DNA from: Algoriphagus ratkowskyi | GTDB taxonomy: Bacteria; Bacteroidota; Bacteroidia; Cytophagales; Cyclobacteriaceae | NCBI RefSeq assembly: GCF_002150505.1 | Contig: NZ_MSSV01000015.1 | Location: forward strand, 124,001-188,000 | Direction: 5' to 3' | Length of the DNA stretch: 64,000 nucleotides | Shown here: piece by piece, positions 56,104-64,000 of the stretch | Layout of the letters: every line of letters begins with the position of its first letter | Position numbering within the stretch: position 1 is the first letter of the stretch | Notes under the pieces: model-generated | Told to the model about the DNA's origin: nothing | The model's database searches: none | What the model saw: the letters and a program-made list of their open reading frames with translations, nothing else | Made by a program: the position numbers and the translations under genes

Positions 56104-56778
56104 TTACAACTTGAAATCCTCTTCCCAGAATTTGAAACCACCTTTGAAAGCATTCTCGTTGGTTCCCAATCTGCATCCTTCAGGAATAGTGGTTAATAAC
56201 TTGGAATTTCCGCCACCCAAGAGAATATCATCTGGCTGAAATGCTGCTCGGAAGTGCTCTACCATTTTTAGCACGTTTTTTTCCCATCTTTTTGTACCGC
56301 TTTTGGTCAGGTATTCCTTTCCAACATACTCTTCGAATGTCTTTTTCTTGAAGGGAAGATGTCCGCCTTCTATAGGTAAGATGGTGTTGTGTATGACCAT
56401 TGCAGTACCGAGGCCAGTTCCTAAACCGAGAAAAAGTAACTTTTTCCCCTCATAACTTCCAAGAGCCTGCATGGCAGCATCATTAATAAATTTTATTGGG
56501 AGATTGAATGCAGCTTGAAAATCAAATTTATTCCAGCCTTCTCCAAGGTTTACAGGTTCTGAGACTATTCGATTTTCTTTGACCACTCCTGGGAATCCCA
56601 TCGTGATCATGTCGTAATCCCAATGAGAAGCATTTTCTTTTACTAATTCAACCAACTCCTCGGGCTTGAAATCTGCTCCAGATGGGATTTTAATTCTTTC
56701 TGCGGCACCTGTTGCCAGGATTTTAATGTTTGAACCCCCTATATCGATTACGAGGATTTTCTTTTTGGTTTTTTCCAT
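56104..56778 (-). CDS. ROK-family kinase (polyphosphate-glucokinase-like)
   Basis: 224 residues. ATP-binding start ILVIDIGGSNIKILATG, substrate region MGFPGVVKENRIVSEPVNLG, catalytic Asp in FINDAAMQALGSYEG and adenosine loop FLGLGTGLGTAMV. No zinc-binding CXCGXXGC motif of typical ROK kinases, a trait of the short polyphosphate-glucokinase type. Likely phosphorylates glucose with ATP or polyphosphate. Monocistronic. Confidence 0.85.
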   Translation of the reverse strand: MEKTKKKILVIDIGGSNIKILATGAAERIKIPSGADFKPEELVELVKENASHWDYDMITMGFPGVVKENRIVSEPVNLGEGWNKFDFQAAFNLPIKFINDAAMQALGSYEGKKLLFLGLGTGLGTAMVIHNTILPIEGGHLPFKKKTFEEYVGKEYLTKSGTKRWEKNVLKMVEHFRAAFQPDDILLGGGNSKLLTTIPEGCRLGTNENAFKGGFKFWEEDFKL

Positions 56779-57184
56779 TCATTGAAACTAATTAGAAATG
56801 TTTACTTACAGAAGAAGAAATTGAATCAATTGTTAATTATTATGATTTATGGTAATTATTTTAATAGCCTTATTTCCCTTGGTTAAGGGGCTGGAAGACC
56901 GAAGACCGATGACCGAAGCCACATCAATTATAGAGTTATTCAATCCTTCTTTTACTTCAAACTCTTTAGAGTTAAATAAATTACATACATAAAAATTTTG
57001 CCTTGAACTTCCCTTGCGCTTCGGTAAATATTTTTTTTGGCTGAAATGATTTTTCTTTAATCAAATGCTGTGTTCTCTCATTTCTTACTTTAAATTACAA
57101 GTATTACATACATCTCAGATGATTCAAATTATTTTCATGTGAGGATTAATTTGACCTTTTTCTACCAGAATATTCTATCTAGCC
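56779..57184. other. Intergenic region upstream of the transglutaminase cluster
   Basis: 406 bp, AT-rich, with a dispersed repeat at 56,890-56,923. It must hold divergent promoters for the ROK gene and the transglutaminase cluster; no convincing consensus seen. Confidence 0.5.
56890..56923 (+). repeat. Dispersed GAAGACCGAAGACCGATGACCGAAG repeat
   Basis: GCTGGAAGACCGAAGACCGA then TGACCGAAGCCACA; clearest copy of the family at 38,699, 42,902 and 53,601, with three GACCGAxG units in tandem. Confidence 0.55.
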
Positions 57185-60100
57185 ATGTCAATTAAAGTTG
57201 CTATCCGGCACTATACCAAATACGAGTACGATCGCCACATTGCACTTAGTGCCCAAGTTATTCGCTTGCGTCCGGCACCTCATTCACGCACTCACATTAA
57301 AGGCTATTCTTTAAATATCAAGCCTGAAAATCATTTCATCAACTGGCAGCAAGATCCATTCGGCAATTATTTAGCAAGGATAGTTTTTCCAGAAAAAGTA
57401 AAATTCTTTGAGATCGATGTGGAAGTGATCGCCGATATGGTTGTGATTAATCCTTTTGATTTTTTTGTGGAAGAGTATGCTGATAAGTTTCCCTTTGTCT
57501 ATGATGAAAGTGTAAAGCAGCAGCTGGGGCCGTATTTGGAGCTGAAAGAGTCCGATGCTTTGTTAATGAAGTTGGTCGAAAAGGCTAAAGCTTTGATCAC
57601 AAAGGATATTATCACAGTGGATTACCTGGTTGCTATTAATGCTATGATCAATCAGGAACTTCGCTACAATGTGCGGATGGAGCCTGGCGTACAATCCTGT
57701 GAAGAGACGCTGAACATCGGCTCAGGATCATGTCGTGACTTTGCCTGGCTATTTGTGCAGGTTTTACGTCATGTGGGATTGGCATCTAGATTCGCTTCTG
57801 GGTATTTGGTTCAATTGAAATCTGATGAGAAATCACTCGATGGGCCATCAGGACCAGAGGAAGATTTTACGGATCTGCATGCGTGGACTGAAGTATATGT
57901 GCCAGGAGCAGGATGGATAGGATTAGATTCGACTTCAGGTTTATTTGCTGGAGAAGGGCATATTCCGCTTGCTTGTACCCCAAGTCCTCAGGATGCAGCT
58001 CCGATTTCTGGGATGTCGGAACCTACGGAAACTGAGTTTTTCTTCAAAAATGAGGTGACTAGGATCGAAGAAACTCCCCGGGTGACCAAACCTTATTCAG
58101 AAGAGCAATGGGAGAAAATACTCGCAGTTGGAGATCTAGTGGATGAAGATTTAGAAGCCAACGACGTGAGGCTGACTATGGGAGGAGAGCCTACTTTTGT
58201 GTCTGTGGATAATCAGGACGCTCCTGAATGGAATACAGACGCTGACGGAGAACATAAGCGAAGTCTTTCCAATACACTTTTTCATAAGCTAAAAGGAGAA
58301 TTCGGAGCAGGTGCGCTGATGCAATATGGTCAGGGGAAATGGTATCCAGGCGAACCTTTGCCGCGATGGAAACTTGCTTGCATCTGGAGAAAGGACGGTA
58401 AACCCATGTGGCACAACGATGCTTTGATGGCAGATTTGTCGAAGGATTATGAAATGGTTGATACCGATGCGGAGAGGTTTATGTCTGAATTGGTTTTGCA
58501 GCTTAATCTTGACAAAAGCAATTTGACGCCTTTGTATGAGGATCCATTCTATTTTATTTGGCAGGAAGGGAAAGTTCCAGTAAATATAGATCCCTATAAA
58601 TACGATCTGAAATCGCCTCTTGAGCGTCAGAAATTAGCTGAACTCCTAAATGAAGGCTTAGATAAACCAGTCGCATTTACTATTCCTTTGGAATGGGATA
58701 CAGAAGAAATCTTATGGCAAAGTTGCAAATGGGAATTCAGAAGGAAAGATTTGTTTTTGGTGCCGGGGAATTCGCCTGCGGGATTGAGACTGCCTTTAGA
58801 TTCTATTGAGTTTACTCCTCCAGAAGAAGAACCACTCAAGCCAGAAACGGACTTATTTGCTGAGGTTTCTGCTTTACCAGATTCATCAGTTAAGGCAACT
58901 TCTTTTAAAACAGCTCCAAAGAATTCAGAGCGTATTTTCAAGACTTCCTTAGTGGTAGAAGTAAGAGAAGGAAAACTCTTTATCTTCTTTCCACCACTCA
59001 ATAGAATTGAGAATTACCTTGATTTGGTGTCTGCGGTAGAGCGTACTGCAGAAAAGTTGGGAATCCTGATTTTGATTGAAGGATATGATCCCCCATCTGA
59101 TAAGCGAATCGAAAAGATGATGATTACTCCAGATCCCGGGGTAATAGAGGTGAATGTTCAGCCAGCTAAAACCTGGAAAGAGGTTACTCACAATTATGCT
59201 GTGATCTATGAGAAAGCCCGCGAATCCCGTCTGATTAGCGAGAAATTCAACGTGGACGGTAAGCATACTGGAACTGGTGGTGGAAATCACATTACCCTTG
59301 GCGGGTCTTCTCCAGAGAATAGCCCTTTGCTAAGAAGACCTGATGTGTTAAAGAGTTTTATTACTTATTGGCAGCATCACCCAGCTTTGTCCTACCTATT
59401 TTCTACCCAATTCATCGGACCTACCAGTCAGGCTCCAAGAGTGGATGAGGGAAGGGACGATATGCTTTATGAGCTAGAATTAGCTTTTCAGCAGGTTCCT
59501 AATGGCAAGGAGAATGAGATTCCTTTTTGGATGGTTGACCGTGTTTTCAGAAACTTACTGGTGGACATTACGGGAAATACGCACAGAGCGGAGTTTTGTA
59601 TTGATAAATTGTATTCACCGGATTCTAGCACAGGTCGCCTTGGGATTCTAGAATTCAGAGGATTTGATATGCCTCCGCATTATCGGATGAGCATGGTGCA
59701 ATTGCTATTGATTCGTGCATTGATGAGCTGGTTTTGGAAAACTCCATACGATCATAAACTCGTACGATGGGGGACTTCTCTTCATGATAAATTTTTGCTT
59801 CCACACCACTGTGAAAAGGATATGGCTGAGGTGGTCAACGATTTGAAAGGTGCTGGGTACGATTTTGATCTTTCGTGGTTTGATCCGTTTTTCTCTTTCC
59901 GTTTTCCTTTTATAGGGGAGCTACAAGTGGATGATATTCATATAGATATGAAGATGGCTATCGAGCCATGGCATGTGTTGGGAGAGGAGATTTCCAGTAC
60001 TGGAACGGCTCGCTATGTAGATTCTTCTTTGGAGAGACTTCAAGTGAAAATCTCAGGATTAACAGATTCTCGTTATCATCTGCTCTGCAACGGACATAGA

Positions 60101-60532
60101 ATTCCTTTGAAGAACACTGGTGTACAGGGTGAGTTTGTCGCTGGCATCCGATACAGAGCGTGGCAGCCTTATTCTGCTTTGCATCCGACTATTGGCATTG
60201 ATACACCCTTGGTGATTGATTTGTATGATACTTGGACTAAAAAGTCTGTGGCAGCTTGCCAATATCATGTGGTACACCCAGGAGGCAGGAGCTACGATAA
60301 TTTTCCTATAAACAGCAATGAAGCGGAATCCCGTAGGATTTCGCGGTTTTTTGACTTTGGCCACACGATCAATTCCTCACCAAATGCACCCAAGACCGCT
60401 GTGCAGGAAGATAAGACGTCAGGCAGGTATATTACTAAAATGAATTTGAAAGCAACTTATGATGAATCTCCTGAGATCGTTAATCCTGAATTCCCATATA
60501 CAATGGATCTCAGACGGTATAAAAAACGCTAA
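57185..60532 (+). CDS. Transglutaminase-like protein with DUF2126
   Basis: 1115 residues. N-terminal bacterial transglutaminase part (1-290): beta-sandwich starting VAIRHYTKYEYDRHIALSAQ, then the catalytic triad Cys183 (GSGSCRDFAW), His232 (DLHAWTEVYVPGAGW) and Asp248 (GLDST). Residues about 320-1110 are DUF2126 (RLTMGGEPTFVSVDNQDAPE, HTGTGGGNHITLGG, NTHRAEFCIDKLY), a domain always found with such transglutaminases and resembling amidoligase/glutamine-synthetase-type folds. First of three genes with 40- and 130-bp gaps. The predicted system makes and cuts amide or isopeptide bonds; substrate unknown. No signal peptide: cytosolic. Confidence 0.93.
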   Translation: MSIKVAIRHYTKYEYDRHIALSAQVIRLRPAPHSRTHIKGYSLNIKPENHFINWQQDPFGNYLARIVFPEKVKFFEIDVEVIADMVVINPFDFFVEEYADKFPFVYDESVKQQLGPYLELKESDALLMKLVEKAKALITKDIITVDYLVAINAMINQELRYNVRMEPGVQSCEETLNIGSGSCRDFAWLFVQVLRHVGLASRFASGYLVQLKSDEKSLDGPSGPEEDFTDLHAWTEVYVPGAGWIGLDSTSGLFAGEGHIPLACTPSPQDAAPISGMSEPTETEFFFKNEVTRIEETPRVTKPYSEEQWEKILAVGDLVDEDLEANDVRLTMGGEPTFVSVDNQDAPEWNTDADGEHKRSLSNTLFHKLKGEFGAGALMQYGQGKWYPGEPLPRWKLACIWRKDGKPMWHNDALMADLSKDYEMVDTDAERFMSELVLQLNLDKSNLTPLYEDPFYFIWQEGKVPVNIDPYKYDLKSPLERQKLAELLNEGLDKPVAFTIPLEWDTEEILWQSCKWEFRRKDLFLVPGNSPAGLRLPLDSIEFTPPEEEPLKPETDLFAEVSALPDSSVKATSFKTAPKNSERIFKTSLVVEVREGKLFIFFPPLNRIENYLDLVSAVERTAEKLGILILIEGYDPPSDKRIEKMMITPDPGVIEVNVQPAKTWKEVTHNYAVIYEKARESRLISEKFNVDGKHTGTGGGNHITLGGSSPENSPLLRRPDVLKSFITYWQHHPALSYLFSTQFIGPTSQAPRVDEGRDDMLYELELAFQQVPNGKENEIPFWMVDRVFRNLLVDITGNTHRAEFCIDKLYSPDSSTGRLGILEFRGFDMPPHYRMSMVQLLLIRALMSWFWKTPYDHKLVRWGTSLHDKFLLPHHCEKDMAEVVNDLKGAGYDFDLSWFDPFFSFRFPFIGELQVDDIHIDMKMAIEPWHVLGEEISSTGTARYVDSSLERLQVKISGLTDSRYHLLCNGHRIPLKNTGVQGEFVAGIRYRAWQPYSALHPTIGIDTPLVIDLYDTWTKKSVAACQYHVVHPGGRSYDNFPINSNEAESRRISRFFDFGHTINSSPNAPKTAVQEDKTSGRYITKMNLKATYDESPEIVNPEFPYTMDLRRYKKR

Positions 60533-60572
60533 TTGTTTATTATTTAAACCTCATTAAGTTCATTTTTGCGGT

Positions 60573-63113
60573 ATGATTGAGTCTTATCTTATTGACAAAA
60601 TGTTCAATAATGAGCCGTTTCTGGATGAAATGGCCACCGACCAAGGTAAAATACATCCTCATTGGGAAAAGTTAGCTAGATACTACGAACAGATTGGATC
60701 TGACCGTATGGGGCAATTCCATGAGGAGGTTGGTCGGCAATTGCGTGAAAATGGCGTGACATACAATGTCTATGGTGATCCCAATGGGATGAATAGACCA
60801 TGGATCTTGGATCCTGTTCCTATGATTTTTAGCAGTGAGGAGTGGGAGGGAATAGAGAAAGGCTTAATTCAAAGAACGGAGCTTTTAAATCTGATCTTGA
60901 GTGACTTGTATGGAGAGCAAACCTTGATCAAAGAAGGTCATATTCCCTTTGAATTGATTTACAATCATGGAGGTTTTCTTCGTCAAGCTCACAACATCAA
61001 GCTCGATGGAGATCAGCAACTTATTCAATATTCTGCTGATTTGGCTCGTGGTCCACATGGCAAAATGTGGGTGCTTCATGATCGCACAGATGCTCCCTCA
61101 GGCTCTGGATATACTTTTGAAAATCGCGCCGCTATGACACGTGTTTTCCCAGAATTAATTCGAGAAAATCACGTACGTAAAATCACCTCCTATTACCAGA
61201 CTTTTAAAAATACACTAAGTAATCTCACCACAAACAATAAGGAAAATCCCCGAGTAGTTTTGCTTTCTCCGGGACCCACGAATGAGACATTTTTCGAGCA
61301 TGCGTACATATCCTCTTTTATGGGATTTACATTGGCTTTTGGAGAGGATCTTACAGTAAGTGATGGATATGTATGGCTGAAAACCATCAAGGGTTTAGAA
61401 AAAGTAGATGTAATAATTCGTCGTGTTGACGATGTTTTTTGTGATCCCTTGGAATACAGAAATGATTCTCACCTAGGCGTTGTGGGCTTGATGGAAGCGA
61501 TTCGACAGAGAAAAGTATTGGTGATTAACCCATTGGGATGTAGAGTGTTAGAGAACCCTGGTTTAATGGCTTTTTTGCCCAAAATAAGCAAACATCTCTT
61601 GGGTGAAGATTTGATTTTACCTTCTGTGGCGACATGGTGGTGCGGTCAGCCTTCCGAAATGAAATATGTTTTTGAGCATATTGAAACATTGGTAATCCGT
61701 AATATTTACAGAAGTACTCAGAAGAAATCTGTTTTTGGAGGAGATCTGTCAAAGGCTGATTTGGAGACTTTTAAGCGGGAGATTAGACGTAGCCCTTTTA
61801 TGTATGTAGGGCAGGAGATGGTAGAATTTTCTACTACTCCCTCTTGGATCAACAATAAGTTGGAGGCAAGAAATGCAGTTTTCCGTAGCTATGTTGTAGC
61901 CGATTCAGAACACAAAAGCTATAAAGTAATGCCAGGTGGAATGTCTAGAAGTTCTCCTGAAAAGGGAGCTTTTCTAGTGTCAAATCAAGGTGGCGGAATC
62001 AGCAAGGACACTTGGGTATTAGGAAAAGGAAAAGAGTCATATGTCTCTGTATCTAAAGCTTTAAAATCTCAGCCATTGGTTCGAAATGTACTTCCTAGTA
62101 GAACTGGAGAGCGCTTATTCTGGCTGGGAAGGTATCTGGAAAGAGCAGCATATTCTGTGCGTCTGATGCGTTTGACCCTACTTTCTTACAATGAAGCGGA
62201 TGAGGATATACATATTCATGACAATCCAGTATTGAGTACTTTGCTTCAGACGCTCACCGTGATGACAGGAACTTTGCCAGGTTTTACTTTGCAGAAGAAC
62301 CTGAAAAAACCTGAGACTGAGCTGCTCGCGCTGGTTCATGATGTCAATAAGACCGGTAGTTTGGCTTATTGTATTCAGTCTTTTCTCACAAATGCGTATT
62401 CGGTACGAGACAGGCTTAGTCCGGATACTTGGAGGATTTTAGATAGTATTTCGGAGGAGCTTACTCGAATGCGCAAATCCGATACGACCCTGATGCAAGC
62501 CTATCAAAGCCTAGATAATATGGTGGTGAAATTGATGGCCTTTTATGGGTTGAATATTGATAACATGACCAGAGAGCCAACATGGCATTTATTGAATATT
62601 GGGCGTTTTATAGAGTCAGCAGCCAACAATTGTTTGATTTTGAAAGGGATGCTGAGTAAATCGTTTGATTCAGAATCTAATAAAGAGTTGATGGAAGATA
62701 CCCTGCGATGCAACGAAAGCTTAGTGACCTATCGCTATCGCTATCGATCCAACCTGGAAATGCACGGGGTTCTGAGTTTATTGATTCTGCATGAAGACAA
62801 TCCAAGAGCATTGATTTTTCAATTACTTGAGATTGATAATCACTTGAAAACTCTTCCTAATCAGAATGAAAAAGAGCTTTTCAGTACTGAGCGTAAGAAA
62901 TTGCTGGAAGCGATCACCAAAATCAGATTATGTGATATTGAGCTTATTTCTACTCCAAATGAGCTAACTCATGAGTTTGATGAGTTAAGGGCACTTTTGG
63001 ATCAAATTATAAAGCTCCTTCATGAGACTTCAGATGCTATTTATGAGAAATATTTTAGTCATACTGAAACTAGATACAGTATGATTCAATCCTCTGTAAT
63101 TCCTGAGATATGA
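60573..63113 (+). CDS. Circularly permuted ATP-grasp plus alpha-E fusion protein
   Basis: 846 residues, cytosolic. Residues about 1-490 form a circularly permuted type 2 ATP-grasp domain: GQFHEEVGRQLRENGVTYNV, RPWILDPVPMIFSSEEW, DVIIRRVDDVFCDPLEYRND and KVMPGGMSRSSPEKG. Residues about 505-840 form the alpha-E domain (LPSRTGERLFWLGRYLERAA; later FIESAANNCLILKGML). In many bacteria these are separate neighbours (COG2308, COG2307); here they are one protein. ATP-grasp implies ATP-driven ligation of a carboxylate to an amine. It lies between two transglutaminase genes; alpha-E is assumed to assist. Confidence 0.92.
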   Translation: MIESYLIDKMFNNEPFLDEMATDQGKIHPHWEKLARYYEQIGSDRMGQFHEEVGRQLRENGVTYNVYGDPNGMNRPWILDPVPMIFSSEEWEGIEKGLIQRTELLNLILSDLYGEQTLIKEGHIPFELIYNHGGFLRQAHNIKLDGDQQLIQYSADLARGPHGKMWVLHDRTDAPSGSGYTFENRAAMTRVFPELIRENHVRKITSYYQTFKNTLSNLTTNNKENPRVVLLSPGPTNETFFEHAYISSFMGFTLAFGEDLTVSDGYVWLKTIKGLEKVDVIIRRVDDVFCDPLEYRNDSHLGVVGLMEAIRQRKVLVINPLGCRVLENPGLMAFLPKISKHLLGEDLILPSVATWWCGQPSEMKYVFEHIETLVIRNIYRSTQKKSVFGGDLSKADLETFKREIRRSPFMYVGQEMVEFSTTPSWINNKLEARNAVFRSYVVADSEHKSYKVMPGGMSRSSPEKGAFLVSNQGGGISKDTWVLGKGKESYVSVSKALKSQPLVRNVLPSRTGERLFWLGRYLERAAYSVRLMRLTLLSYNEADEDIHIHDNPVLSTLLQTLTVMTGTLPGFTLQKNLKKPETELLALVHDVNKTGSLAYCIQSFLTNAYSVRDRLSPDTWRILDSISEELTRMRKSDTTLMQAYQSLDNMVVKLMAFYGLNIDNMTREPTWHLLNIGRFIESAANNCLILKGMLSKSFDSESNKELMEDTLRCNESLVTYRYRYRSNLEMHGVLSLLILHEDNPRALIFQLLEIDNHLKTLPNQNEKELFSTERKKLLEAITKIRLCDIELISTPNELTHEFDELRALLDQIIKLLHETSDAIYEKYFSHTETRYSMIQSSVIPEI

Positions 63114-63226
63114 AATCATCACTAGCTCAAGCGTTACACGGAAAGGTGATTAAACTCCATGCGAGATTCTCCCAAAACAAGCCTGCCTGGGGCAGACATG
63201 TTCGGGACGGGCTATGTGACCAATAA
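63110..63226 (+). CDS. Possible 38-aa ORF overlapping the ATP-grasp stop
   Basis: ATG overlaps the preceding stop as ATGA and the frame runs 38 codons: MKSSLAQALHGKVIKLHARF and on to GLCDQ, stop at 63,224. Basic composition, no known family. The DNA includes a GCCTGCC/GGCAGAC hairpin. It could be a real coupled small peptide or chance. Confidence 0.25.
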   Translation: MKSSLAQALHGKVIKLHARFSQNKPAWGRHVRDGLCDQ

Positions 63227-63243
63227 AAATCAAGTATAAACAC

Positions 63244-64000
63244 ATGAAATATAAAGTCACACATATCACAGATTATATCTACGAGTTCCCAGCTACTCTT
63301 TGTCATAACCTGATGTTCCAGATTCCTCCAAATCTACCTTTTCAAAATGTGGAAGAATACACCTGTGAAATCACTCCAAAGCCGAGTTCTGAGATAGAGA
63401 GAATAGATTTTTTTGGGAATAAGTACTTATATTTTTCTGTGGAAAGACCTCATAAAAATCTAACTATCAACTCTAAAAGTTTGGTGGAACTCTCTGCTCC
63501 GCCATGGATAGCTATCAAACCAACTGAGACTATGGTATGGGAAAAAGTGGTCGAATTACTTCATTCCACAGAAACCTCTACGGATGTTCGGCAATATTAC
63601 TTAGAGTCGAACCACGTTCAATTTGTGGATAGGATACGTGCTTATACGTTGAAATCTTTCACTCCCGGGCGACCAATAATGGAAGCTATGCTTGACCTGA
63701 ATACTCGGATATTTCGTGATTTTGCTTTTACTCCAGGGTTCACAGATATCAGTACTCCGTTAGAGAAAGTTTTTAAGCATAAAAAGGGTGTATGTCAGGA
63801 TTTTGCACATTTTTCTCTGGCCTGCTTGCGTGTAATTGGATTGTCTGCTCGATATGTCAGTGGGTATCTGGAGACTCTACCACCTCCCGGCAAGCCAAAA
63901 TTAATAGGTGCAGATGCTTCACATGCTTGGATTGCAGTATATATGCCAGGGCACGCATGGGTGGAGTTTGATGCGACAAATAACCTGCTAGTGAATGATA
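63244..64000 (+). CDS. Transglutaminase-like cysteine protease family protein (3' end outside window)
   Basis: 252 residues visible from the ATG at 63,244 to the end of the window with no stop. N-terminal bacterial transglutaminase beta domain (MKYKVTHITDYIYEFPATLC) and catalytic triad Cys184 (KKGVCQDFAHFSLACLRVIG), His227 (DASHAWIAVYMPG) and Asp243 (WVEFDATNN). Typical members have about 270-300 residues, so perhaps 30-40 are missing. Third gene of the cluster. Known clusters of this kind often continue with a proteasome-like Anbu peptidase, which would lie beyond the window. Confidence 0.92.
   Translation, partial: MKYKVTHITDYIYEFPATLCHNLMFQIPPNLPFQNVEEYTCEITPKPSSEIERIDFFGNKYLYFSVERPHKNLTINSKSLVELSAPPWIAIKPTETMVWEKVVELLHSTETSTDVRQYYLESNHVQFVDRIRAYTLKSFTPGRPIMEAMLDLNTRIFRDFAFTPGFTDISTPLEKVFKHKKGVCQDFAHFSLACLRVIGLSARYVSGYLETLPPPGKPKLIGADASHAWIAVYMPGHAWVEFDATNNLLVND

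What the first reader, a model, noticed from the sequence alone, without database searches (positions are those of the whole stretch)
57185..64000. Transglutaminase / ATP-grasp / alpha-E cluster with fused ATP-grasp-alpha-E: an uncharacterised amide-bond system
Three adjacent genes encode a transglutaminase-DUF2126 protein with intact Cys183-His232-Asp248, a circularly permuted ATP-grasp fused to alpha-E, and a second transglutaminase with Cys184-His227-Asp243. Comparative genomics (Iyer and co-workers on amidoligases) predicted that such sets make and cleave peptide-like tags, but substrates remain unknown. The ATP-grasp-alpha-E fusion removes doubt that the two act together. All three lack signal peptides, so the product is made in the cytosol.
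Basis: partly seen in the sequence, partly recalled or inferred. Interest (0 to 1): 0.75.

Follow-up and report, generated by a model that had tools for sequence, protein, structure and literature searches.

The report
Amide-bond enzyme cluster without Anbu
Three neighbouring genes in an Algoriphagus-type bacterium encode a known but uncharacterised set of enzymes predicted to make and break amide bonds; in the genus sample examined the set occurs only in genomes that lack the proteasome-like protein Anbu, which suggests that the two can stand in for each other.

Summary
57185-60532 is transglutaminase-DUF2126, 60573-63113 is a circularly permuted ATP-grasp fused to alpha-E, and 63244-64125 (cut by the window end) is a second transglutaminase. 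All six catalytic residues named are present, and conserved in relatives except for one Asp in one of 13. The kind is known (a 2009 prediction by Iyer et al., seen only as cited by others), and the same gene order occurs in Proteobacteria and Acidobacteriota.

New here: no Anbu was found in this genome. Of 72 genus genomes, 18 carry the cluster and 33 carry Anbu, none both; all 51 have an unfused alpha-E. At least two separate switches are needed (one clade rejected, p-AU 0.003). In five genomes Anbu alone has gone from between alpha-E and the operon transglutaminase. Across the phylum, however, DUF2126 and Anbu co-occur more often than expected, so the exclusion is not general.

Published transcriptomes place relatives of both the Anbu operon and the DUF2126 cluster among genes controlled by NtrC. 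Best reading: a cytosolic ATP-driven amide-forming and amide-cleaving module of nitrogen metabolism, in which the transglutaminase-ligase cluster can replace Anbu. Substrate unknown. Predicted structures were too poor to test the proposed fold of DUF2126.

The parts
57085..57129 (+). Conserved upstream element (TTACTTTAAATTAC ... CAGATGATTCAAAT), possible promoter or regulator site
   Evidence: Recognisable by eye, with variation, in the alignment of 18 of 18 Algoriphagus clusters lying in three upstream-flank groups. Patterns taken from it, searched upstream of the unfused ATP-grasp gene: the TAAWTTAC part in 0 of 18 cluster genomes and 3 of 31 Anbu genomes, the CCCA part in 0 of 49. The 15-mer occurs once without mismatch in the window, at 57089
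57185..60532 (+). Gene 1: transglutaminase domain (residues 1 to about 280) fused to DUF2126, a predicted amidoligase (280-1110); Cys183/His232/Asp248
   Evidence: triad in 15 of 15 proteins
57185..58024 (+). Transglutaminase domain TG1, on the same branch as the transglutaminase of this genus's Anbu operon
58022..60514 (+). DUF2126 domain
   Evidence: PF09899, 1282 bits; no solved relative found by sequence
60573..63113 (+). Gene 2: circularly permuted ATP-grasp fused to alpha-E
60819..61952 (+). ATP-grasp domain (residues 83-460)
   Evidence: PF14403; solved relative 3n6x, E 4e-83; 34 residues invariant in 20 proteins, 14 fused and 6 unfused
62091..63056 (+). Alpha-E domain (residues 507-828)
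   Evidence: PF04168, 230 bits; differs from unfused alpha-E
63244..64000 (+). Gene 3: transglutaminase TG2, Cys184/His227/Asp243; continues to 64125 beyond the window
   Evidence: Cys and His in 13 of 13, Asp in 12 of 13

Best explanation
A cytosolic module that makes and breaks amide bonds with ATP. The ATP-grasp-alpha-E protein activates a carboxylate as an acyl phosphate and joins it to an amine, alpha-E acting as the domain that holds substrate or partner. DUF2126 is a second ligase, and the two transglutaminase-fold Cys-His-Asp enzymes cleave or transfer the amide. The module works beside a core unfused ATP-grasp/alpha-E pair elsewhere in the genome. In Algoriphagus it takes over the role played in sister genomes by Anbu plus the Anbu-operon transglutaminase. 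The physiological setting is most likely nitrogen limitation, with a small peptide or amino-acid-like amide as substrate. Shown here: gene content, fusions, conserved active sites, constant company of an unfused alpha-E, exclusion from Anbu within the genus with at least two switches. Shown by others for relatives: NtrC-dependent expression; release of phosphate from ATP by an unfused ATP-grasp relative. Inferred: ligase and amidase chemistry of these proteins, the substrate, and the functional replacement.
For: Domains and active sites. Fusion and DUF2126 go together: 9 of 9 fusion genomes of 296 and the same 18 of 72 in the genus. Each of these genomes also has an unfused alpha-E, and in an Enterobacter plasmid the unfused pair and the three genes lie in one run. 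Genus: cluster 18, Anbu 33, both 0. Two changes on a MetG tree, one clade rejected with p-AU 0.003; three changes on the core-gene tree, two forced by starred branches; upstream flanks in three groups of 12, 4 and 2 genomes. Anbu alone missing from between alpha-E and transglutaminase in 5 genomes, both missing in 13. TG1 lies on one branch with the Anbu-operon transglutaminase (99*). Regulation: I35_5080-83 of Burkholderia cenocepacia (DUF404/407, DUF403, transglutaminase, large transglutaminase protein) is NtrC- and sigma54-dependent (PMC5491218, passages), and a B. cenocepacia record shows such an order followed by the fusion and TG2. PP_2685-2688 of Pseudomonas putida responds to nitrogen supply (PMC7801951, PMC3325844, PMC8050072, passages).
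Against: In the phylum sample DUF2126 and Anbu are positively associated: 6 of 12 DUF2126 genomes have Anbu against 15 of 284 others, and three fusion genomes (G190, G154, G283) have both. Only about two switches are informative on the MetG tree and the independent-pairs test cannot reach significance. Anbu also sits beside transglutaminases of the TG3 type (G214, G154, G099), which group with TG2, not TG1. In PMC7801951 the Anbu gene PP_2685 itself stands at 1.12 in the first column of the table while PP_2686-2688 stand at 11-15. No nitrogen-regulation evidence in Algoriphagus itself was seen. The glutamine-synthetase-like fold of DUF2126 found no support: model pLDDT 48, hhalign probability below 1%, no better than one control. 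No product or activity of a fusion protein appears in the passages read.
Confidence: 0.4

Rival explanations
1. Protein tagging (the prediction credited to Iyer and co-workers): the ligases attach a peptide tag to cell proteins and the transglutaminases (elsewhere Anbu) remove it or lead to degradation.
For: Proposed for the Anbu operon in the literature (passages in PMC6376114 and PMC5666114); two ligases and two thiol hydrolases would fit writer and eraser.
Against: No tag or carrier gene was noticed between the three genes (frames under 90 aa were not listed, relatives were not searched for one). Co-expressed Yersinia bercovieri operon proteins showed no specific interaction and Anbu cleaved none of the proteasome substrates tried (PMC6376114, passages).
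Confidence: 0.2
2. The Anbu exclusion is incidental: cluster gains and Anbu losses share a few lineages without functional link.
For: Only 2-3 events; other families keep both (G190, G154, G283); Anbu was not found in 98 of 119 alpha-E genomes of the phylum sample, so Anbu is easily done without.
Against: Within the genus all 33 alpha-E genomes without the cluster keep Anbu and none of 18 with it does; three upstream-flank groups. No Anbu match in the 12-20 kb read around 26 Bacteroidota fusion loci (17; the own locus and 8 others) nor around 12 plasmid loci with DUF2126 and fusion.
Confidence: 0.35
3. True transglutaminases: the two thiol enzymes cross-link proteins or polyamines, and the ATP-grasp makes a polyamine conjugate in the manner of glutathionylspermidine synthase.
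For: Solved relatives are named putative glutathionylspermidine synthase (3n6x) and protein-glutamine gamma-glutamyltransferase (6g49). An arginase-family gene and an ornithine/arginine-decarboxylase-type gene lie about 5.5 and 8.7 kb past TG2 in this genome.
Against: Those names are depositor labels; the better match of TG2 is called a putative cysteine protease (3isr). Of 119 loci searched, the arginase gene turns up in five of the named Algoriphagus cluster loci (three of the five cut by the locus end) and in no other locus, and the decarboxylase gene in none (most loci reach too short a way to show them), so this looks like local synteny.
Confidence: 0.1

Closest known systems
Anbu operon (ATP-grasp, alpha-E, transglutaminase, Anbu), e.g. 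PP_2685-2688 of Pseudomonas putida, Y. bercovieri operon
   Same: Same ATP-grasp, alpha-E and transglutaminase families; in the genus sample a genome has one or the other
   Different: No Anbu; ATP-grasp and alpha-E fused; transglutaminase fused to DUF2126; extra transglutaminase TG2
Burkholderia cenocepacia I35_5080-83 (PMC5491218) and the cluster in L231
   Same: Transglutaminase-DUF2126, fusion and TG2 in the same order in L231; no Anbu match there; I35_5080-83 NtrC-dependent
   Different: Unfused pair and a further transglutaminase lie directly upstream; in the window's genome the unfused pair is on another contig. That L231 and I35_5080-83 are one locus is inferred from gene order
Five-gene run on Enterobacter roggenkampii plasmid p1_120063
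   Same: ATP-grasp, alpha-E, transglutaminase-DUF2126, ATP-grasp-alpha-E, transglutaminase; DUF2126 protein 55% identical to the window's
   Different: Contiguous and plasmid-borne
Peptide synthesis/tagging systems predicted by Iyer et al. 2009 (PMC3268129, not held; seen only as cited in other papers, abstract recalled)
   Same: Circularly permuted ATP-grasp, alpha-E, predicted second ligase, transglutaminase
   Different: The Ntn-hydrolase (Anbu) part was not found in the genome

Membership tests
Circularly permuted ATP-grasp/alpha-E/transglutaminase amide-bond systems | Circularly permuted ATP-grasp | tested here: met
   PF14403 E 8e-145, 3n6x E 4e-83
Circularly permuted ATP-grasp/alpha-E/transglutaminase amide-bond systems | Alpha-E domain | tested here: met
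   PF04168 230 bits over cut-off 20.8; first ER motif present, second reads ES
Circularly permuted ATP-grasp/alpha-E/transglutaminase amide-bond systems | Transglutaminase-like protein with Cys-His-Asp | tested here: met
Circularly permuted ATP-grasp/alpha-E/transglutaminase amide-bond systems | ATP-dependent amide-bond formation | not testable with these tools
   Phosphate release shown by others for an unfused relative only (PMC6376114, passages)
Anbu operon | Anbu gene in the operon or genome | tested here: not met
   Only HslV found with PF00227; Anbu profile A1 finds nothing in G000 while it scores 412-436 bits in 33 relatives
Glutamine-synthetase-like ligases (proposed for DUF2126) | Match to the DUF2126 family named putative amidoligase | tested here: met
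   PF09899 1282 bits
Glutamine-synthetase-like ligases (proposed for DUF2126) | Glutamine-synthetase-like, circularly permuted fold | tested here: inconclusive
   Model pLDDT 48, Foldseek hits with TM-scores near 0.1; hhalign probability below 1% to 13 shorter and 15 long glutamine synthetases; shallow profiles, so no refutation
Peptide-tagging system in the sense of Iyer et al. | Ntn-hydrolase peptidase (Anbu) | tested here: not met
Peptide-tagging system in the sense of Iyer et al. | Tagged proteins | not testable with these tools
   needs proteomics

The most novel reading that the evidence does not exclude
The transglutaminase-DUF2126/ATP-grasp-alpha-E/TG2 cluster is a natural functional substitute for Anbu. 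If so, Anbu is not a protein-degrading proteasome but the hydrolytic step of a nitrogen-limitation amide cycle, a step that transglutaminase-fold enzymes can perform instead.
Probability: 0.3. Interest if true: 0.75.

Novelty: new member of a known kind. Interest (0 to 1): 0.48.

Why it matters
Anbu is a proteasome relative with solved structures and no known function (PMC5666114, PMC6376114, PMC8665760, passages). A genus in which it has been exchanged at least twice for a defined set of predicted ligases and thiol hydrolases, with a retained core pair, says which genes belong to one process. Together with published NtrC control of relatives it turns an open question into a short list of deletion and metabolite tests in harmless strains.

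Tried and rejected
Structure prediction of the fusion protein (15 Algoriphagus sequences, the others 83-92% identical to the window's) and of the DUF2126 domain gave pLDDT 43 and 48. Foldseek found one match at E 0.001 or better for the first, 3n6x, and for the second six diphtheria-toxin chains with TM-scores of about 0.1, which I take as meaningless. No fold claim is made. Profile searches of PDB with DUF2126 (A5, best E 0.17) and alpha-E (A6) found no credible relative; 2lse, 'Four Helix Bundle Protein', at E 5e-4 was set aside as general helix similarity. Profile comparison of DUF2126 with glutamine synthetases failed. One viral-contig scan found no relative. Rfam: nothing at gathering threshold in 52-64 kb. 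I first read the DUF2126 tree as a separate transfer into G359, because there it nests with G361; the tree of all three proteins puts G359 and G319 together apart from the other 16 (96*), so that claim was dropped. A phylum-wide rule that Anbu and DUF2126 exclude each other was tested and rejected. That the upstream element also controls the unfused pair was tested and not found.

Literature: no paper on DUF2126 function or on Anbu replacement was noticed in the listings;'s 81 papers only the 30 listed were seen, and's 31 only 20. Iyer 2009 is not held. Papers were seen as passages only.

Counts left out or to note: G090 (alpha-E of the unfused type in an 844-aa open frame, not read) and G151 (match below cut-off) were not counted as fusions. 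G328's alpha-E is split over two contigs. 14 of 72 genus genomes, all without alpha-E, were not in the MetG tree (58 rows). Core-gene tree 48 of 51; the unfused ATP-grasp was read in 49 of 51. 14 of the 25 plasmid records with DUF2126 at E 1e-100 or better were read, plus one with the fusion but no DUF2126 beside it.
Full report
Observation. The three genes are present as described. The third is cut by the window end and is 293 aa in the genome (window 63244-64125). Both Cys-His-Asp sets sit at the stated residues. They are conserved: TG1 in 15 of 15 proteins; TG2 Cys and His in 13 of 13, Asp in 12 of 13. None of the three has a hydrophobic N-terminus. The genome is an Algoriphagus or very close relative: the 14 loci found in the named genome collection are all Algoriphagus, with fusion proteins 83-92% identical, and all 14 keep the gene order. 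Fusion and TG2 genes overlap by 4 bases in 9 of 18 genus clusters and are 108 to 552 bases apart in the other 9, the window among them.

Parts. Gene 1 joins a transglutaminase domain to DUF2126, which Pfam names a putative amidoligase. Gene 2 joins a circularly permuted ATP-grasp (solved relative 3n6x) to alpha-E. Thirty-four ATP-grasp residues are invariant in 20 proteins, 14 fused and 6 unfused. The fused alpha-E differs from unfused alpha-E: the second ER motif reads ES here and is lost in the fusions of G126, G091 and G226 too, but kept in the seven unfused proteins aligned. The two transglutaminases belong to different lineages (quick tree of 47 rows, 18 of 44 inner branches weak). TG1 shares a branch (99*) with 11 rows that I labelled Anbu-operon transglutaminases (one of them, G226, from an alpha-E operon without Anbu, and four from operons that have lost Anbu) and with TG4_G079. 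TG2 lies with transglutaminases of other alpha-E operons (TG4) and with TG3. The split does not follow Anbu neatly: TG3 also sits beside Anbu in G214, G154 and G099.

Spread. In 296 Bacteroidota genomes at least 90% complete, alpha-E is found in 119 (118 over cut-off), the fusion in 9, DUF2126 in 12 and Anbu in 21. All 9 fusion genomes have DUF2126 and a second, unfused alpha-E. Fusion and DUF2126 lie on one contig within about 15 kb in 7 of 9; they are far apart in G091 and on different contigs in G137. The three DUF2126 genomes without fusion (G064, G158, G162) have transglutaminase-DUF2126 divergent to an unfused ATP-grasp/alpha-E/Anbu run. Outside the phylum, 14 of 25 plasmid records with DUF2126 were read. 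Eleven have the clean order transglutaminase-DUF2126, fusion, TG2 (Acidobacteriota and Alpha-, Beta- and Gammaproteobacteria); a twelfth (Halomonas) has it in broken frames; Caballeronia Lep1P3 has a broken fusion; Acidithiobacillus caldus has no fusion and two Anbu-like genes nearby. Eight of the 14, not counting A. caldus, also hold the unfused pair nearby. An Enterobacter plasmid carries the unfused pair and the three genes as one run. So the window's cluster and the distant unfused pair of this genome (L004) are most likely two halves of one system.

Anbu. The only proteasome-type gene found in the genome is HslV (identified by length and sequence). A profile of 12 Anbu proteins (A1) finds nothing in it but scores 412-436 bits in 33 of 72 genus genomes. 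The fusion and DUF2126 occur in the same 18 genomes. No genome has both Anbu and the cluster, and all 51 have an unfused alpha-E. Four of the 18 are single-contig assemblies (G307, G314, G330, G348), so missing contigs cannot explain the pattern. At the unfused locus the Anbu genomes read ATP-grasp, alpha-E, Anbu, transglutaminase (30 loci read; in one, G332, the contig ends inside Anbu); in the other three, coordinates put Anbu next to alpha-E. Of the 18 cluster genomes, all read, five keep the transglutaminase with Anbu gone and thirteen have lost both; no Anbu remnant was found in the 2.5 kb after alpha-E. The locus lies on the same contig stretch as metG in 16 of the 18 and in 29 of the 30.

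Independence. On a MetG tree of 58 genomes, cluster against Anbu needs two changes, and holding the 18 as one clade is rejected (p-AU 0.003). The tree of the unfused pair needs three, with two forced by starred branches. Upstream flanks of the cluster fall into three groups of 12, 4 and 2 genomes, the same groups as on the core-gene tree; downstream flanks fall into six groups, none of which mixes those three. The Fisher value for the 51 genomes (4e-14) ignores kinship and should not be used alone; the independent-pairs test has only about two informative pairs. Against a general rule: in the phylum sample 6 of 12 DUF2126 genomes have Anbu versus 15 of 284 others, and G190, G154 and G283 have fusion and Anbu at separate loci.

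Mechanism. ATP-grasp ligases work through acyl phosphates, and an unfused relative from the Yersinia bercovieri Anbu operon releases phosphate from ATP, while Anbu itself cleaved none of the substrates tried (PMC6376114, passages). The setting is best hinted at by regulation. In Burkholderia cenocepacia the genes for DUF404/407, DUF403, a transglutaminase and a large transglutaminase protein (I35_5080-83) depend on NtrC and sigma54 (PMC5491218, passages). A B. cenocepacia record shows the order ATP-grasp, alpha-E, transglutaminase, transglutaminase-DUF2126, fusion, TG2 (L231); that this is the same locus is my inference from order. In Pseudomonas putida the operon PP_2685-2688, whose PP_2685 is the proteasome-like member, rises under nitrogen limitation (PMC3325844 and PMC7801951) and on nitrate against ammonium (PMC8050072) (passages); in PMC7801951 PP_2685 itself hardly moves in the first column of the table. 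Marine metagenome abundances link these domains with urea metabolism (PMC3597751, passages). A. caldus has ntrC and glnL close by. These lines fit a nitrogen-linked amide cycle better than general protein tagging, but none was measured in Algoriphagus.

Known or new. The kind is known and its function is not. What I did not notice in print is the exchange of Anbu for this cluster within a genus. DUF2126 and alpha-E have no solved relative that these searches could find, and my models were too poor to help.

Noticed in passing
window 57085-57129: Upstream element recognisable in all 18 Algoriphagus clusters although they lie in three upstream-flank groups; its core patterns are rare or absent upstream of the unfused ATP-grasp gene. 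Function unknown.
   Followed up: partly
window 63114-63243: 130-base spacer between fusion and TG2; 9 of 18 genus clusters have such a spacer (108-552 bases), 9 have a 4-base overlap. No repeat found.
   Followed up: partly
window 62613-62618 (fusion residues 681-682): Second ER motif of alpha-E reads ES; also lost in fusions of G126, G091 and G226, kept in the seven unfused alpha-E proteins aligned.
   Followed up: partly
window 56104-56778 (-): ROK-family gene next to the cluster, similar to polyphosphate glucokinase but far under that model's cut-off; also beside the cluster in L009.
   Followed up: no
L003:13168-14118 (-) and L003:16342-17733 (+): Arginase-family and ornithine/arginine-decarboxylase-type genes 5.5-9 kb past TG2; the arginase gene recurs past the cluster in five named Algoriphagus loci.
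   Followed up: partly
L005:1285-2634: Third transglutaminase-core gene of the genome (contig C50), with a lipoprotein-like N-terminus and on another contig than the cluster.
   Followed up: no
L193:2181-3242, L233:6809-7870: Caballeronia: divergent putative zinc metallopeptidase (Peptidase_Mx) between unfused alpha-E and transglutaminase-DUF2126.
   Followed up: no
L236: Acidithiobacillus caldus megaplasmid: ntrC and glnL, two Anbu-like genes (weak matches, 57 and 79 bits), transglutaminase and DUF2126 as separate genes, unfused ATP-grasp and alpha-E, and an aliphatic amidase in one region.
   Followed up: partly
L188 (G359): DUF2126 alone nests with G361, while the three proteins together place G359 with G319: possible recombination or weak signal.
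   Followed up: partly
phylum sample: Anbu was found in only 21 of the 119 alpha-E genomes; among the 30 best-scoring alpha-E loci read, 21 have a transglutaminase best matching the TG4 reference beside alpha-E (many are from one family).
   Followed up: partly
L229: Halomonas sp. PA16-9: cluster genes read as several separate open frames, so broken or with sequencing errors.
   Followed up: no
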